64,000 nucleotides of DNA from Populus alba (lineage: Eukaryota > Streptophyta > Magnoliopsida > Malpighiales > Salicaceae): positions 4,675,157 through 4,739,156 of the forward strand of contig NC_133301.1 of assembly GCF_005239225.2 (NCBI RefSeq), given 5' to 3'. A program made the position numbers and the translations under genes. Shown piece by piece: positions 8,691 to 39,600 of the stretch. Every line of letters begins with the position of its first letter. The first letter of the stretch is position 1. The notes beneath the pieces are model-generated. The model ran no database searches and was not told where the DNA came from. It saw only the letters and a program-made list of their open reading frames with translations.

Positions 8691-9596
8691 ATTTGAATTA
8701 GACAATAAAATTTTTCATACATTTTCAAATTTCACATAGGAAGCTAGTAATCATCTCCTAATATGTAAGTTAGAATATTATATCTAAATTGATCAAGATT
8801 AACATTTTAGGATTACTCTCTTCATCCACAATGTTACATGCATCACGTACATTAATTTTGAGTTTCTTATGGACTCCATTGGCATTTGGCACTCAAATTA
8901 AAAATAAGTCTCATTCTAGAGTGATATAATTTGTGCTAAATTTTATACCGGGTCAAGCAAATAAAATATGAAACATGAATAATAAATATAGCCACTCAAA
9001 TTAAAGAGCATAATTATTTATGAAATTACGATGAGAATTATTAAGGTGTAGCATGTCAGAAATTTCAATTCACACAATTTTTTTTGTTATGTGTTATAAC
9101 TATTGTACGTACCAAAAAAAAAAACTGACTCCCTGTAATTTAAACAGGTGATTATTTATTATATTTATATGCATGGTCACATGCCACCAGTTTTCCAACA
9201 AATTAAAATTGAAGACTAAAAGAATTTATATTTACAAGGAACATTTTGTGAACTAACATTATACAAGGCTTGTCCTCATAATATATTTACTGGTGATGTA
9301 CTAGGACTACAAGGGGACAGAATGTACCAGAGCATTTCTTGAGAAAAAGAAGTGGCAGCTCACATCACAGGACCAGTATTGAAGCCACTCTTTTAGAAAA
9401 TATTTTTAAAAGAGTGTTTTGTCTTGGAATTGGTTTGGATTTTATTTGTGGAACACCTTTCTCTTATCATTTTTTCATCCATGAATGGAAAGGCTACCCA
9501 AAAGCCTGATCAGTGTCCTAATTCCTCCCAACACTCACACTCACTAAGAATAAAATTTAATAAAATTATTGATTTAGTGAAAAATTGGCCATGAAT
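8691..9596. other. AT-rich intergenic DNA, no gene seen
   Basis: No protein motif or repeat structure recognised between the copia relic and the assembly gap. Confidence 0.5.
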
Positions 9597-10096
9597 NNNN
9601 NNNNNNNNNNNNNNNNNNNNNNNNNNNNNNNNNNNNNNNNNNNNNNNNNNNNNNNNNNNNNNNNNNNNNNNNNNNNNNNNNNNNNNNNNNNNNNNNNNNN
9701 NNNNNNNNNNNNNNNNNNNNNNNNNNNNNNNNNNNNNNNNNNNNNNNNNNNNNNNNNNNNNNNNNNNNNNNNNNNNNNNNNNNNNNNNNNNNNNNNNNNN
9801 NNNNNNNNNNNNNNNNNNNNNNNNNNNNNNNNNNNNNNNNNNNNNNNNNNNNNNNNNNNNNNNNNNNNNNNNNNNNNNNNNNNNNNNNNNNNNNNNNNNN
9901 NNNNNNNNNNNNNNNNNNNNNNNNNNNNNNNNNNNNNNNNNNNNNNNNNNNNNNNNNNNNNNNNNNNNNNNNNNNNNNNNNNNNNNNNNNNNNNNNNNNN
10001 NNNNNNNNNNNNNNNNNNNNNNNNNNNNNNNNNNNNNNNNNNNNNNNNNNNNNNNNNNNNNNNNNNNNNNNNNNNNNNNNNNNNNNNNNNNNNNNN
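9597..10096. other. Assembly gap of 500 N
   Basis: Exactly 500 undetermined bases, probably a placeholder length for a gap of unknown size. Reading frames spanning it are meaningless. Confidence 0.99.
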
Positions 10097-10859
10097 CCAA
10101 GCATCAATCATAGGCTTTTATTTAGGATTTTTGAAAACCAGATTCCACAAACACAAAGGCACTTCCATTGCCGATGTTAACGTGCGAGCAACCTTTGTAA
10201 ACCTTGAAATTTCATTTGTTCATATTTGAAATTAATTATTAAAAAACTTATCCATTGTCGTTTATTTTTTTATTGTGCTTGAAAAGAAAACAAACTTACA
10301 TGTTGTGATTCGGCTTCCACTAAGTAATATATTTCCTAGTGTATATATCCTACTCAGAAAAGACACCCTTTTTATGAGTCGCTCTTGCACTCGACAAACT
10401 TGCATCGAGAAAGGGTGCCTGTTTCTGAAGTGCCTAAGTCATGGTCGACACTTAACGGCTCATTGGTCATCGTATTTACTCTTTAATGATCTTCTCTTCA
10501 CCATCTAGACAAATTTGATATTAAAAAAAACTAATAACATTATCACTATATCCTATTTTTTTCAAAAAAAAACAAAAACAAAGAAATGACAACACCTCCT
10601 CTATATGGGAGGACTACTTAAAAATTTATTACTTTGCAAATACGCATCAATAAATAAAGCCACATAAACCAGTTAATTTTATTAATGACTAATATTTAAT
10701 TTATTTATTTTGTGTGATTTTGACATCAATTTGAGAGTGTATTGGCTAAATAAATATCATGCAAGTATGGACTGTTTTACAAAGATGATGACCCTTAAGA
10801 CGTAAGAATAAGAAGAAGTAGAATTTAAGGGTGAGAGGTGAGTTGTTTTAAATTGTATT
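10097..10859. other. Intergenic DNA, no gene seen
   Basis: AT-rich sequence between the gap and a retroelement relic. No supported coding region. Confidence 0.5.
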
Positions 10860-13853: not shown

Positions 13854-13861
13854 CTTCCACC
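13854..13861. repeat. 8-bp target-site duplication, left copy
   Basis: CTTCCACC directly left of the element end CATAGTTTTAAAACCCG. The same eight bases follow the right end at 14818-14825. Confidence 0.9.
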
Positions 13862-14039
13862 CATAGTTTTAAAACCCGACCCGGTCATCAACCCGGTCGA
13901 GTGATCGGGTCACGGGTCAGATGGGTGACCCGGGTTAAACCCGGGTCAACCCAAAAAAAAGAGTTACAATTAAACAAAACTAACACACATCACCATTAAC
14001 TATTTTAAAAAAACCCTAACAAACCGAAATTTATTAAGA

Positions 14040-14315
14040 ATTTAACTTCTCGGTCTTGCAGCTCAGTCACCTCCACTAGAACCTTCAGCAGCCAGGGTGC
14101 TCGACTTCTAACATCTTAAGAATAGTAGCCACCATTATTGGTGATTGTTACGTCTCCGATATCATCTACAAGCATCTTGTCAAGACCAACAAGACACGAG
14201 TTGAGGATTTAAACGATATTGGCGACTGCTTGACAGGCCACCACATTTTGAGTGCGAACGTCCTGGCTGGACTATCTGTCGCCGAGAATATCAGGTGTCT
14301 GTGCGGCGACTGCCA
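14040..14315 (-). pseudogene. Captured CCT1 (TCP-1 alpha) 5' coding fragment
   Basis: The minus strand starts with an ATG (14315-14313) and reads MAVAAQTPDILGDR, a stop, SSQDVRTQNVVACQAVANIV, another stop, then VGLDKMLVDDIGDVTITNNG (around 14205-14140). A shifted frame continues with ATILKMLEVEHPG, and KVLVEVTELQDREV closes the match near 14045. This matches the N-terminal ATP-binding region of chaperonin subunit alpha (CCT1), which folds actin and tubulin as part of the TRiC complex. Internal stops and two frame changes make it non-coding. Upstream sequence (about 14316-14342) includes an AAACCCTA telo-box of the kind found in 5' leaders of housekeeping plant genes, so part of the leader may have been captured as well. 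Confidence 0.85.
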
Positions 14316-14338
14316 TTTTTAGTGGAAGAAATGAAACC

Positions 14339-14450
14339 CTAGATCGGATCTGTTAGTGACTTGAGGGAAAAGGAGAGAGAGTGACAAGTGACTTCTAGAT
14401 CGGATCTGTTAGTGACTTGAGGGAAAAGGAGAGAGAGTGACGAGTGACTT
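14339..14450. repeat. 56-bp tandem duplication
   Basis: CTAGATCGGATCTGTTAGTG starts at 14339 and again at 14395. The two 56-bp copies differ by one base near their ends (CAAGTG against CGAGTG). The duplication lies inside the hAT element between the two captured gene fragments. Confidence 0.95.
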
Positions 14451-14531
14451 CTAGCAAGTGAAGAACCACGAAGTTCTCTGTTCTGCCATTCTTCTATAAA
14501 AAGGAAAGGAAAAATATATAAACCCTAACAG

Positions 14532-14640
14532 ACTGCGGCGCAGAGGATGATGGAGAAGATGGGGTGGAAGGAAGGGCAAGGATTGGGGAAACAGGAGCAA
14601 GTGATTAAGACCCATTGATTGTGAAGAAGACTAACAGGAA
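14532..14640 (+). pseudogene. Captured G-patch fragment (SPF45/DRT111-like)
   Basis: The plus strand reads TAAQRMMEKMGWKEGQGLGK then QEQVIKTH before a stop. A frame-shifted PLIVKKTNRK follows. The glycine pattern (GW..GQGLG) is the G-patch signature, and AAQRMM..MGWKEGQGLGKQEQ is close to the plant splicing factor SPF45/DRT111 (RBM17 family). The fragment covers one domain only, has a frameshift, and runs straight into the element's CCGGGT-rich end. An AAACCCTAA motif lies just upstream (about 14520-14528). Confidence 0.8.
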
Positions 14641-14817
14641 AAAAAGTGACCGGGTCTCACCCGGGTTTGACCGGGTGGACCGGGTCCCGGGTCGACCCGG
14701 CGGGTCGACCGGGTTTCCCCGGGCCAATTCCCAAGCGGGTTTTTGCCTCCACCCGGACCGGTCCCAGGTCCGGGTCCCGGGTCAACCCGCCGGGCTGGTC
14801 CGGGTTTTAAAACTATG

Positions 14818-14825
14818 CTTCCACC
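14818..14825. repeat. 8-bp target-site duplication, right copy
   Basis: CTTCCACC directly right of the element end, identical to 13854-13861. Confidence 0.9.
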
Positions 14826-33617: not shown

Positions 33618-36600
33618 TTATTTTGATCCATCAATGATGAGCTGTCCCCGTTTTTCAAGCTCATTAAGCATTGCAAGTGCCGCAGAGTCATATGAGGTCT
33701 TCTTATCAGCACTGGCCTCTCCCGCACATTCAACGACGCCATACGACGGTATGTTCATGATGATTTTTGATACATAACTGTTAAATCCCTTCCTTTTATC
33801 AGGGCCCTCGCCAAATTCAATTGCAGTTCTGCGGGAACAAGTCAATTAGAACGACAAATATGCAGGAAAGAAAAAATTTAGCATTGAAAACTAATGATCT
33901 TTGTATATAAACGAGAATTTGGGTGACCAAAAAAAAAGCTTGTAGGGTTGGCAAACCTGGATTTCGTTTCTGTTGTGTCAAATGTAGGCATTGTCCATTG
34001 AACTTTCTTACAGAGATCATAAAGACTAGTACGAGGTCCTCCTTTCTTCTTGTTAATCGACTCAATAACTGCAAAAGGGGGTGATTTAGCGAGATATTCC
34101 ACAATATTTGAGGGTACGATTGAATTCATCAGAAAGCAGAAGACTACTCATTTAACAATGAAAAATCAAGATATAACTGCAGGCACCAACCAGCACACTA
34201 ATTTTCTTGCAAGAACCAAAAAACTACCTCCTCAGTCCCATGACATGCGTTTATTATATTAATAAACTCTTCAATTCATTCCTGGTGCAGAAGATGGGCT
34301 AGCAACAGTTTTAAGGAAAATCGAGACAGTAAGATAATATAAGATATGTGCTAAGCATTGGACTTGATCAGAAAGGAGCTGAGATAGTGTGTGCCCTTGA
34401 GCAGCATATATAAAATAAACTGTTCCTTCTCTGAATCACATTTAGAATCAAATAGGAAGCCAAATCATTTGATGATGGATACCTGGGGGACCATGACTAG
34501 GACTGATGGCAGGGGAACAATCTGCATTTGAATCTCCAGGCACTTGGTTTTCTATTTTCTGCTTTTTTGGCTTTGTTTTTCCAGAAAAATCTTCATTTTC
34601 TAAGAAGCCAGGGGAACTTGAATCAACAACAGGGTCAGTGTCCTGTTTCCTCCTCTTTGAACCTCCACGTGAGTATACGATGCCTCTTTTCTGTTTACAT
34701 GAGCATACAAGGGTTAAAATAGAGTTTACAAGAATTTGATTTTTTGAAGCCTTGAAAGACATTCAAATAATTAATCACTGTATGTTTCAAAGACAGAAAA
34801 GCATCAAAGTCACACAAATATCTTAAAATGCTATTATTTCTTCATTGATTTTAATTTACAAAAAAACAGCAAGAATTAGAATGCTGAAAAAGCTTTCACG
34901 TCCATGAATTTTCCTGGATAAATATCATCTTTAGTTTGCTTATTCTAGAAACCTGCTGTTGGATTTGCTAGCCAAACAACCACCAGAACGACTTTTTAAG
35001 TACAGAATGGATGTTTCAGCAGTATGACCATTAGCCAAGAAATCTTACAACAATAGTGATAGTTACTAGAAAAAGAACTAGAGAAACAAAACAGCTCTGG
35101 GTTTTATTATCGTGGGATCCAGCAAGTGGTAAAATATGAAAACATACAGGCATGATTGCAATTCCCAGAATTACAAACCTGGAGCTTCTTCAACAAACAA
35201 GAAGCTGCTTTTCCTTTAGCTGCTTTCCTGTTTTTCTCATACCCCTCTCCAGACAAGAGCTCGTTGTCCAGCTGTACCCAAAGCTGGGCGTGAACCATCT
35301 CAGCTTTCTTGGTACATTTCTCTTTTACAAAAACTCCTATAGAGTCACATAATTCAACAAGTTCACGCAGTGGAGGCAGCTCAAGTTTCTCAGGGGTTAC
35401 AATTGGAGATAACAAGGGCTTGAATATTCTCCACACACCATCGAGATTGAACTTTGTATCAATTAATAATGCCCCTGCAATGCTTTCAATCAGGTCTCCA
35501 AGAGCCTGTAGGAAACGATCAGAACAATTTGTCATTAATAAATAGGATTGCAGAACAGGAAACCACCACAAGAAGTTTAGATATGTAAAAAGCACCATAA
35601 TCAGAGCTTCAAAGGATTAGTTGCTGCTAACCTTTGAAGATAGCAATATAATTTGCTATAATTGAGGAAAACATAAAGAAAATAAGAGATTGAGTGGGTC
35701 AGCCTAGGAACTTACCTTGGGAGCCTTTGGGCCTTGATCAGATTCATGAAAAGAATTCACATATTCTCTTATTTGACTTTGAAGGAGTGTAGAACAATGA
35801 AGAAGATGGGTATATAGGTTTTGTTTCACGGCAACTTGAGCAAAGTTATCATTGTTAACAGAAGCTGAGCGCAAGTCAGTCAGCTCGCCAGGATCAACAT
35901 CTGTGTGGCTCTGATAGAGATGCCATGTTATAAGCAAGTCCAATACAGAATCACCAAGAAATTCAAGCCTCTGTCGAAAATCCAAAAGAAATATATCAAA
36001 CACCAGTCCCGTTAAGATTATTGCAAACAGTTACAGGAAATAAAGAGTCTTGTGCACTTAAATCTCGTCATCAAATACATTTAGTGAGTAAGCATTTCTG
36101 TATTAACATTATAAAATGAAAAAAAAAAAAAAAGCATTGAGATCATTCATGTATGTTACAAAAATCTGTTTAAAAATTGCTCGGATAAAATTACTGTACC
36201 TTGAGATTTCAAATTTTTATATTTTTCCAAATTGGTTTCGCTGCTGAGCAACCAGAATAAGGAAAATATACTTAAATTAAAAAAAAAGGTGTCAATTAAA
36301 ATAACCCCCTTGAACAATATAGGCACCACCCAAAAGTTTGAAAAATCTTACCAAATCACCTCCAATTTTAAGAAACTACTACAGAACAGAAACCTCCTTT
36401 TATAACAAAAATACCCTTCATGGGCTAAAATTATCCCCTTTGACAGCAAGGGAATTTGTAATGATTTCTTAAACATAGAAAGGGTTTTTGTCAAATCCTC
36501 AAACTTTTAGATGTCATTTGTAATTTCAAGGGCTATTGGAGTTTACCCTAAAAAAAAAAGGAAAGGAAAAATATGATAAAAATTTCATTACCTGGTAACA

Positions 36601-39600
36601 GTATGTAACACCCTGTTCTTGCATAGATGCATGAGTCATGGCCTCCTGCAAGACAAACTTGACACCGAAGGCATACCCAAGCTTTGACTCTAGACTCTTA
36701 ATCTCATCTTCTTTAGGGATATAAGATCGTAGAGATGCACTCGTAATTGCTTCGCTTATTAGTGAAGGATCAAGTTCAGCATTAATGCCAAACCACTTCA
36801 TCACATGAATTGCAGCAATCAATCCACCACTGACATAGTATGCCCCTATGACAGATTCAACACAATCTGATATGGTTTTGGAAACCATCCATCGGTGACC
36901 TGAATCACAAGGTTTTCCAACCTTAACAATTGCACTTTCGGTTTGGAACTTACGATCCAATGGTACTTCTAAAGTATCAACCCCACATTTGCAAGGAACT
37001 GGAGTACGTACAGAGTTCTGTCCAGGAGCAGTCCAACGACGGGGATTAAATGGACTGTCTAGTATATAACCCTGGCATGTAAGAAATGCAGAACATTTTG
37101 TTTCAGACACCTATTGCAAACGAACTATTCAAAACACTTAATGATTTAAAATATCGTGGCTAGGATAAAATTTGTGGAAGATTATTCAGTTTCATATCAA
37201 TCCATGTGCCTGAACTATTAATTCTGGTAAAATTGAGTGACAAAAAAAGGTGATGATCAGAATATACGTGTAAATATGAAGTAGAAGGTATACTAGCATG
37301 TATGATGATCAAAACATACATGTGTGCATATGAAGTAGAAGGTTTACTATTTAGACTTGTCCAGATTCAAATACCACATTTCAGCCATTTCATGGAAATA
37401 CAAGTGCAAATACAAGTGCAGAACATTTGATAACTACAATCACAGCAATGTGAAACACTTCAATTCAAGTCTCAAAACAATCAGGGAGAGCATACTTCAA
37501 TGGACAAAGAAACACTAACAAATTCTATCCCAAAAGAAAATTAACATTGGGTTCAATTGTAAAATCTTCTGGAATTCGTTTCTGCAAACGCAGAACATCA
37601 GCAAAGTTATTAAACAATACCTGAAAAACAAAAAAAAACAAAAACACAAAGGAAGAGGAAAAACCACATGCGCTCAGAAAACACAATTTTTTATGGAAAA
37701 TGATACTTCTTAAAGATAGAACTAGAAGCCACAAATATCATAATCAAATACCTGTACTTTACAATCTGTTCCCAATTTATGTAGGGTTGAATTACAAACA
37801 GTCCCTGAGCGCCATGAAGATAACTGGCCTTCATGTTTATTGGGATATTTTAAAAATAGGTGGCAGCTGACAGCATACTTTAGAACAGAGTCCCCTAGCA
37901 ACTCCAGTCGCTCCATCGAAAAACTTTCACAGCATCTAAGCGTTGTTATCGCTTCCAGAATCTAATGATCAAAGCAGGTGACCACATTAACTTAAAGGTG
38001 AATAATTCATTAAAAATACAAAAAAATGAAGAGCAATTTAATGGGACAAGACCAATGAGCTTGGGATGTAAAAATCAGGAGCATGACAATCAATCACTTG
38101 TCTAAGTTGACTGGCCAACATCAGGCACTCAAGACGGTGCATCAAAGATGGCATCAGATAAATTGATTTTACAACACTGATAAGAACATCAATCTTGATC
38201 AAAAGCTCTGGTGGCATATGCACATGTTGCTGCTGTTTTCTGCCTACCATGCCATCTTTTGAATTACCTGATCATTTAATAGGACATGTAACAAATCAGA
38301 TAACAGAACAGGGAACTCATTGCTAAATTCAACAGCATAGCCTGATTCAGAAGACAATGTAGTAGCTTATAATGTCAATTGCAATAGCTTTTATAATTGA
38401 GAGAAGTTGATGCATATTGGTGAATTTCCCAATTCTTCAAATCTGGTTTACACTTTGTCAATAATCTTAGCATAGGATTAACTTCAAGATAATAGAATTG
38501 AAGTGCCAGATAATCAGACTGAGACTGAGTTGCCCAACAGAAAACAATTCCACCTCATAACAGATCTCAAGCACACAAACTAACAAACCTTCATCATTAA
38601 AGTTTACAAGATGATTGTGTGGGTTATGGCTTTGCTTTAACCGCAACAGAGGCTGTCCTGGATGCATCAGCACAATTCCGTACCTGAGAGCAGCTGATGT
38701 TAGGTATGGAAACTGTAGATGATAACGAGGAGAAATGAACATAAGACCCTCAGCTGGACCCACCAACCTTTTGTTGAAGTACTCTGTGTATGTTGAAAAC
38801 TCTGTCACATTATCAGCATTTCCCTCAAAAGCACTCTCCGCAGATGAATCGTTCACGACTTTAACAATGGAGTAGATTCTTCCCGTGTGGATTGCCAATA
38901 CCACCATATTGTTAATGTTCTCTACGTTGACTAAAGCATTAGCAAAATGGATTAAATTTGTACCATTGCATTCTACGGTGGATGACTGAACATTATCAGG
39001 TAATGTATTTCCTCCACCACTGCAAGACCGAGCAGTCAAAAAGGAGTTCTTCAAGTATTCTACCACAGATGAGCAAGCTTCAATTCCTTTCCAATCTATT
39101 TTCCACCGATCATTACTGGAAATGCTCCATGGCTCTAGTGGTAGAAGCAGATACATGTTTGAGGGGCTCCACAGTGATGTTTCTTTCTGAAGTAAGAACT
39201 CCCTAGATGATTTAGATCCAGTAAACAACTTTCCAAACAAGCCATTGAAAAAGAATTCTTGAAACAGTTTTGCTTTCGTCATCTAATAAAAATATAAAAA
39301 ACAGATACAGCATTCAGGAAATAACTAATCCAAGATAAAAAGAAATATTACTGAGATAATGAGCACGCAACATGTTAATACCTGTGCAGCATCCAAGTGA
39401 ACTACTCCACATGAAGAAATAGAAGACTTGACGATCTTTGCAACCAAATAAAGATCCAACTCAATGTTTCCCACATCATCATCGAGCTTTGACTCAATGA
39501 GAAGAATAAATCCAGAATAGATCTCACTGACAATGGAGCAAGAGAAGTCAAACTTGTATGCATGAAAAGTGGCTCCATCAAGTTTCTCTCCCCAACTTCC

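What the first reader, a model, noticed from the sequence alone, without database searches (positions are those of the whole stretch)
13862..14817. A hAT-type non-autonomous element carrying pieces of two unrelated host genes
The sequence shows a perfect 8-bp target duplication, 17 identical terminal bases, and two internal pieces. One reads as the N-terminus of chaperonin subunit CCT1 on the minus strand, from its ATG; the other as an SPF45/DRT111-type G-patch on the plus strand. Gene-fragment capture is well known for Pack-MULEs and Helitrons; a compact hAT-class element with two captured fragments is less commonly described. If transcribed, the CCT1 piece on the antisense strand could give small RNAs against a real CCT1 gene. 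Functional effect is inference.
Basis: partly seen in the sequence, partly recalled or inferred. Interest (0 to 1): 0.85.

Follow-up and report, generated by a model that had tools for sequence, protein, structure and literature searches.

The report
Jumping gene carrying spliced gene pieces
A small plant jumping gene carries pieces of two ordinary genes, and one piece lacks its introns exactly as a messenger RNA does, which suggests that this cut-and-paste element picked up a copy made from RNA.

Summary
Window 13862-14817 is a 956-bp non-autonomous hAT element: 17-bp perfect inverted ends, a perfect 8-bp target duplication, an antisense CCT1 5' piece and a sense G-patch piece. Copies on C19 and C6 carry the same cargo, each with its own perfect 8-bp duplication. 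Of 38 fetched loci sharing the right end (those two included), 33 gave paired ends with an 8-bp duplication. One, L032, carries hAT transposase domains.

All three are missing, at the splice junctions, from all three element copies. The piece is therefore RNA-derived.

Pack-hAT elements are known. The plant hAT captures I read about keep introns; one fungal hAT carries spliced histone H3. The G-patch donor, and whether other members' gene pieces are spliced, could not be tested, because the genome search answered 1 of 47 requests; one relative (L023) appears to keep introns. Verdict: a real Pack-hAT, a new variant of a known kind.

The parts
13854..13861 (.). left 8-bp target duplication CTTCCACC
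   Evidence: sequence
13862..13878 (+). left 17-bp terminal inverted repeat
13862..13960 (+). left end shared across the family (about 100 bp)
13961..14043 (.). unassigned stretch, shared with the C19 and C6 copies
14044..14082 (-). CCT1 exon 4, first part
14083..14175 (-). CCT1 exon 3
14176..14243 (-). CCT1 exon 2
14244..14316 (-). CCT1 exon 1 coding part, from the ATG
14317..14512 (-). CCT1 sequence upstream of the ATG (5' leader), with one extra 56-bp unit
14339..14450 (.). 56-bp tandem duplication (2.1 copies by TRF), single in the C19 and C6 copies
14532..14638 (+). G-patch piece (SPF45/DRT111-type by recall), with a one-base deletion relative to the C6 copy
14639..14817 (+). right end shared across the family (about 180 bp)
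14801..14817 (-). right 17-bp terminal inverted repeat
14818..14825 (.). right 8-bp target duplication CTTCCACC
   Evidence: sequence

Best explanation
This is a Pack-hAT: a non-autonomous hAT element whose ends would be recognised by a transposase of relatives such as L032, and whose middle has been replaced by host sequence. Its CCT1 cargo is RNA-derived: 5' leader plus exons 1 to mid exon 4, joined at the splice junctions (shown). Most likely a reverse-transcribed CCT1 copy was joined in as filler while a break or gap inside the element was being repaired, beside a G-patch fragment in the opposite orientation (inferred). The loaded element then transposed as a unit to at least three places (shown by three different target duplications), and the cargo of the window copy has decayed. 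It makes no CCT1 protein; antisense small RNA against CCT1 is possible but untested. The confidence is for an RNA-derived Pack-hAT cargo; for filler capture rather than uptake of a chromosomal retrocopy I would give about 0.5.
For: Ends and duplication. Three copies with the same cargo and different perfect 8-bp duplications. 33 of 38 fetched loci with paired ends and duplication, 26 of 38 perfect. Ends matched by most of 33 other members, interiors mostly by 0-2. Transposase domains in L032. Donor introns of 101, 219 and 112 nt, GT-AG; the C19 copy aligns to the joined donor exons in one 409-nt piece at 96.1%, and to the unspliced gene only in pieces; the C6 copy crosses all three joins in two pieces. 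In the one genome search answered, no intron-free CCT1 copy outside the three elements was listed.
Against: The G-patch donor was never located, so whether that piece is spliced is unknown. The captured piece reaches about 150 nt upstream of the CCT1 ATG and includes a TATA-like TTTTATAG; if that is the real promoter, the usual mRNA would not contain it. Relative L023 appears to keep introns in its pyrophosphatase fragment, so the family also takes up genomic DNA. One search scored 40 of 663 candidates, so an intron-free CCT1 copy elsewhere is not excluded. No poly(A) tail is present, the piece ending inside exon 4.
Confidence: 0.8

Rival explanations
1. A retrocopy of CCT1 was first inserted in a chromosome by a retrotransposon's reverse transcriptase; two hAT elements then landed on either side of it (or one element copied it), and the whole was mobilised as a unit, the tandem-insertion model of Pack-TYPE capture.
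For: Spliced cargo. The tandem-insertion model is argued for Pack-TYPE elements, with similar hAT examples mentioned (PMC8903248 section 9).
Against: The piece holds the 5' end of the mRNA only, without a 3' end or tail.
Confidence: 0.4
2. The element captured genomic CCT1 DNA with introns, which were lost afterwards by deletion.
For: Genomic capture is the usual case in the plant hATs I read about (PMC3260210; PMC2528002) and appears to hold for relative L023.
Against: Three removals, each exactly at GT-AG borders and shared by all three copies.
Confidence: 0.02
3. The cargo acts: antisense CCT1 RNA from the element yields small RNAs that damp the C2 CCT1 gene.
For: Antisense orientation within the element and 96% identity over exon-scale stretches.
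Against: No transcription or small-RNA data; no reading frame of 130 aa or more lies in the element; the cargo is decaying.
Confidence: 0.1

Closest known systems
Pack-hAT / Pack-TYPE elements of maize and rice (PMC8903248; abstract, sections 8 and 9 and passages seen)
   Same: hAT ends, 8-bp duplication, captured gene fragments; a two-gene capture is described there for a Pack-PIF subgroup
   Different: spliced cargo is not mentioned in the parts I saw
Maize Ds2 and Ds-l4 elements with gene fragments (PMC3260210; passages and section 19 seen)
   Same: non-autonomous hAT, Ds-l4 with a modal length of about 1 kb, filler DNA matched to genes in some cases
   Different: introns are kept in the cases described; [quoted passage not shown]
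Grapevine hAT family Hatvine-6 (PMC2528002; passages and section 10 seen)
   Same: shared ends with interiors that are often unique and often match genic sequence
   Different: interiors described as matching introns and exons; those elements share a transposase sequence
Pseudocercospora fijiensis hAT with histone H3 (PMC6710886; passages seen)
   Same: spliced cargo with exon-exon junctions; the authors infer capture of a transcript or retrocopy
   Different: a fungus, a single captured gene, elements of about 9.5 kb with a hAT domain

Membership tests
hAT superfamily | short terminal inverted repeats and 8-bp target duplication | tested here: met
   33 of 38 fetched loci with duplication at 0-2 mismatches, 26 of 38 perfect
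hAT superfamily | hAT transposase in a relative with the same ends | tested here: met
   L032: zf-BED, DUF659, Dimer_Tnp_hAT in separate reading frames
hAT superfamily | mobilisation by that transposase | not testable with these tools
   needs an excision assay
Pack-TYPE (Pack-hAT) | captured host gene fragment with an identified donor outside the element | tested here: met
   CCT1 gene on C2, L009
Pack-TYPE (Pack-hAT) | donor locus of the second fragment | tested here: inconclusive
   G-patch domain match only; donor searches not answered (and later)
Pack-TYPE (Pack-hAT) | no transposase of its own | tested here: met
   956 bp, no reading frame of 130 aa or more in it; interior is CCT1, G-patch and two short unassigned stretches
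retrocopy (processed pseudogene) | introns removed at splice junctions | tested here: met
   three donor introns absent in the window, C19 and C6 copies
retrocopy (processed pseudogene) | 3' end with poly(A) tail | tested here: not met
   the piece ends inside exon 4 and runs into an unassigned stretch

The most novel reading that the evidence does not exclude
A plant hAT family that repeatedly takes up reverse-transcribed mRNA: besides CCT1, members carry an unbroken eL34 reading frame covering the whole Pfam profile (L047), a 218-aa Ribosomal_L1 frame (L038) and a CDK11-like kinase frame (L021). One cut-and-paste family would then link RNA-based copying with DNA-based spreading of housekeeping genes.
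Probability: 0.35. Interest if true: 0.75.

Novelty: new variant of a known kind. Interest (0 to 1): 0.58.

Why it matters
How cut-and-paste elements acquire gene fragments is unsettled, and for the plant hATs in the papers I saw the evidence points to genomic DNA (PMC3260210). A family with shared ends, varied interiors and at least one spliced cargo makes the question testable: score introns in every cargo against its donor. A study of metazoan Pack-TIRs discarded intronless captures to control for retroduplicates (PMC8277862, passages), so such cases may be under-counted.

Tried and rejected
Considered and rejected: chance ends (0.24 expected at up to 3 mismatches, and the duplication is exact); later loss of introns by deletion (see rivals); an Rfam element (no match at gathering score); tRNA genes (none). 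The single-strand fold of the element is stronger than its 20 shuffles (z -7.37); inverted ends alone could explain this, and I drew nothing from it.

NCBIfam on four interior frames gave only distant kinase matches for one and nothing for three. A local comparison of the interiors with the window and all fetched flanks found no donor other than the C2 CCT1 gene. Of 38 loci, L031, L037, L040, L044 and L046 gave no paired ends within the fetched stretch. The end search accepted only pairs with a duplication at 0-2 mismatches, so those counts are conditional on that rule.

The Pfam scan of interiors covered 26 of 33 bounded loci. Left out: L010 and L011 (the window's own cargo), L014, L034, L036 and L039 (near-copies of members scanned) and L022 (short). 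Weak matches at E 0.0037-0.0091 and a LisH match below its cut-off in L026 were not counted.

An earlier count said 18 of 19 relatives have ends and duplication; one search shows 19 of 19. Its exon coordinates were refined.

Full report
What is there. The window lies at G000:C18:4675157-4739156 in a 416-Mb genome of 96 contigs. Its size and gene content suggest a poplar-like plant (inference; no call names it). At 13862-14817 sits a 956-bp element with 17-bp perfect inverted ends and the 8-bp duplication CTTCCACC. Its interior holds a CCT1 piece on the minus strand and a G-patch piece on the plus strand. The label SPF45/DRT111 for the second is from recall; the best PDB match is SUGP1.

Other copies. 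One search found a near-identical copy on C19 (L010:2027-2927, 901 bp, duplication CTTTGAAT) and a longer, diverged copy on C6 (L011:2039-3561, 1523 bp, duplication GTTGCATC); boundaries and duplications are. Window and C19 differ at 21 of 892 aligned positions, window and C6 at 73 of 894 (some of these positions come from a short stretch aligned out of step, as one search shows). The window copy has a second 56-bp unit and several one-base insertions not seen in the other two. The C6 copy keeps a longer, in-frame 66-residue G-patch piece, much of which the other two lack, and carries about 440 bp of other DNA in place of about 12 bases in CCT1 exon 2. The cargo was therefore in place before the copies separated, and the loaded element moved at least to these three sites.

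The family. In one search the right end matched at 38 other loci, a lower bound because 40 of 663 candidates were scored; I fetched all 38 (L010-L047). Paired ends with an 8-bp duplication at 0-2 mismatches were found in 19 of 19 and 14 of 19, together 33 of 38, with 26 of 38 perfect. Comparing the window element and these 33, ends of about 100 bp on the left and 180-190 bp on the right are matched by most other members, while the middle of most members is matched by none to two others. Six-frame Pfam scans of 26 of the 33 interiors and scans of single frames assign cellular domains to seven of the 26: a CDK11-like kinase (L021; CDK11B is also the best PDB match), MORN repeats (L019), pyrophosphatase (L023, where the single frame tested falls below the Pfam cut-off while the read-through frame set gave 7e-17), Dabb (L028), eL34 (L047), Ribosomal_L1 (L038) and PPR (L033). 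A Peptidase_S41 match was not assigned to a member. L032 (3852 bp) has the same ends and carries zf-BED, DUF659 and Dimer_Tnp_hAT domains; L031 is a near-copy of it, 98.9% over 2589 bp. So the family is hAT by anatomy and by transposase.

The CCT1 piece is spliced. The donor gene is on C2 (L009). Its exons 1-4 are separated by introns at L009 2730-2830, 2896-3114 and 3205-3316 (101, 219 and 112 nt), each GT...AG. The element runs from about 150 nt 5' of the ATG through exons 1, 2 and 3 into exon 4 with none of this intron sequence. The C19 copy aligns to the joined exons in one stretch of 409 nt at 96.1%; the window copy does so in two overlapping pieces because of its 56-bp duplication; the C6 copy does so in two pieces on either side of its insert, and these pieces cross all three joins. 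Against the gene itself all three copies align only in exon-bounded pieces. Three exact removals are not plausible as random deletions; the sequence passed through RNA.

How it most likely arose. Shown: shared ends, differing middles, a spliced cargo, three separate insertions. Inferred: repair of a break or gap inside the element used a reverse transcript as filler, beside a G-patch fragment in the opposite orientation. The insert in the C6 copy, organelle-like by eye and not tested, looks like another filler event. A point against a simple mRNA is the TATA-like TTTTATAG inside the captured leader, which fits only if transcription can start further upstream.

How general it is. L023 shows pyrophosphatase coding stretches separated by non-coding sequence with GT...AG borders, read by eye, so genomic capture appears to occur in this family too. 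L021 (181 aa), L038 (218 aa) and L047 (eL34, whole profile) have unbroken frames, which is what spliced cargo would look like, but their donors were not seen because the genome search did not answer again. This is a lead, not a result.

Against the literature. Pack-TYPE elements of hAT type are described in maize and rice, with two captured gene fragments in a Pack-PIF subgroup (PMC8903248). [quoted passage not shown] Grapevine Hatvine-6 has often-unique interiors matching genic introns and exons (PMC2528002). A fungal hAT carries spliced histone H3 (PMC6710886), so spliced capture by a hAT has a precedent outside plants. Ten paper searches listed no plant hAT with spliced cargo that I recognised from titles and abstract openings; I opened only the five papers named in this report, in part, and the library lacks most subscription journals.

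Verdict. Novelty: new variant of a known kind. A small-RNA effect remains speculation.

Noticed in passing
L047:4029-4448 (-): A relative with the same ends carries an unbroken ribosomal protein eL34 frame covering the whole Pfam profile (E 3e-36); donor introns not checked.
   Followed up: partly
L011:about 2418-2860: The C6 copy has about 440 bp of other DNA, organelle-like by eye, in place of about 12 bases of CCT1 exon 2.
   Followed up: no
L031 and L032: Two relatives with transposase sequence are 98.9% identical over 2589 bp, which suggests recent activity; L032 also seems to contain a PPR fragment (by eye).
   Followed up: partly
L023:2150-2760: A pyrophosphatase fragment that appears to keep two introns, so the family seems to take up genomic DNA too.
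   Followed up: partly
window 14090-14230: The window copy differs from C19 and C6 here mainly by one-base insertions; assembly error or real decay.
   Followed up: no
window 35107-37110: RNase III/Dicer-like reading frames on the minus strand (recognised by eye, not tested).
   Followed up: no
window about 9574-10111: A stretch whose translations read X, so its bases appear withheld as N.
   Followed up: no
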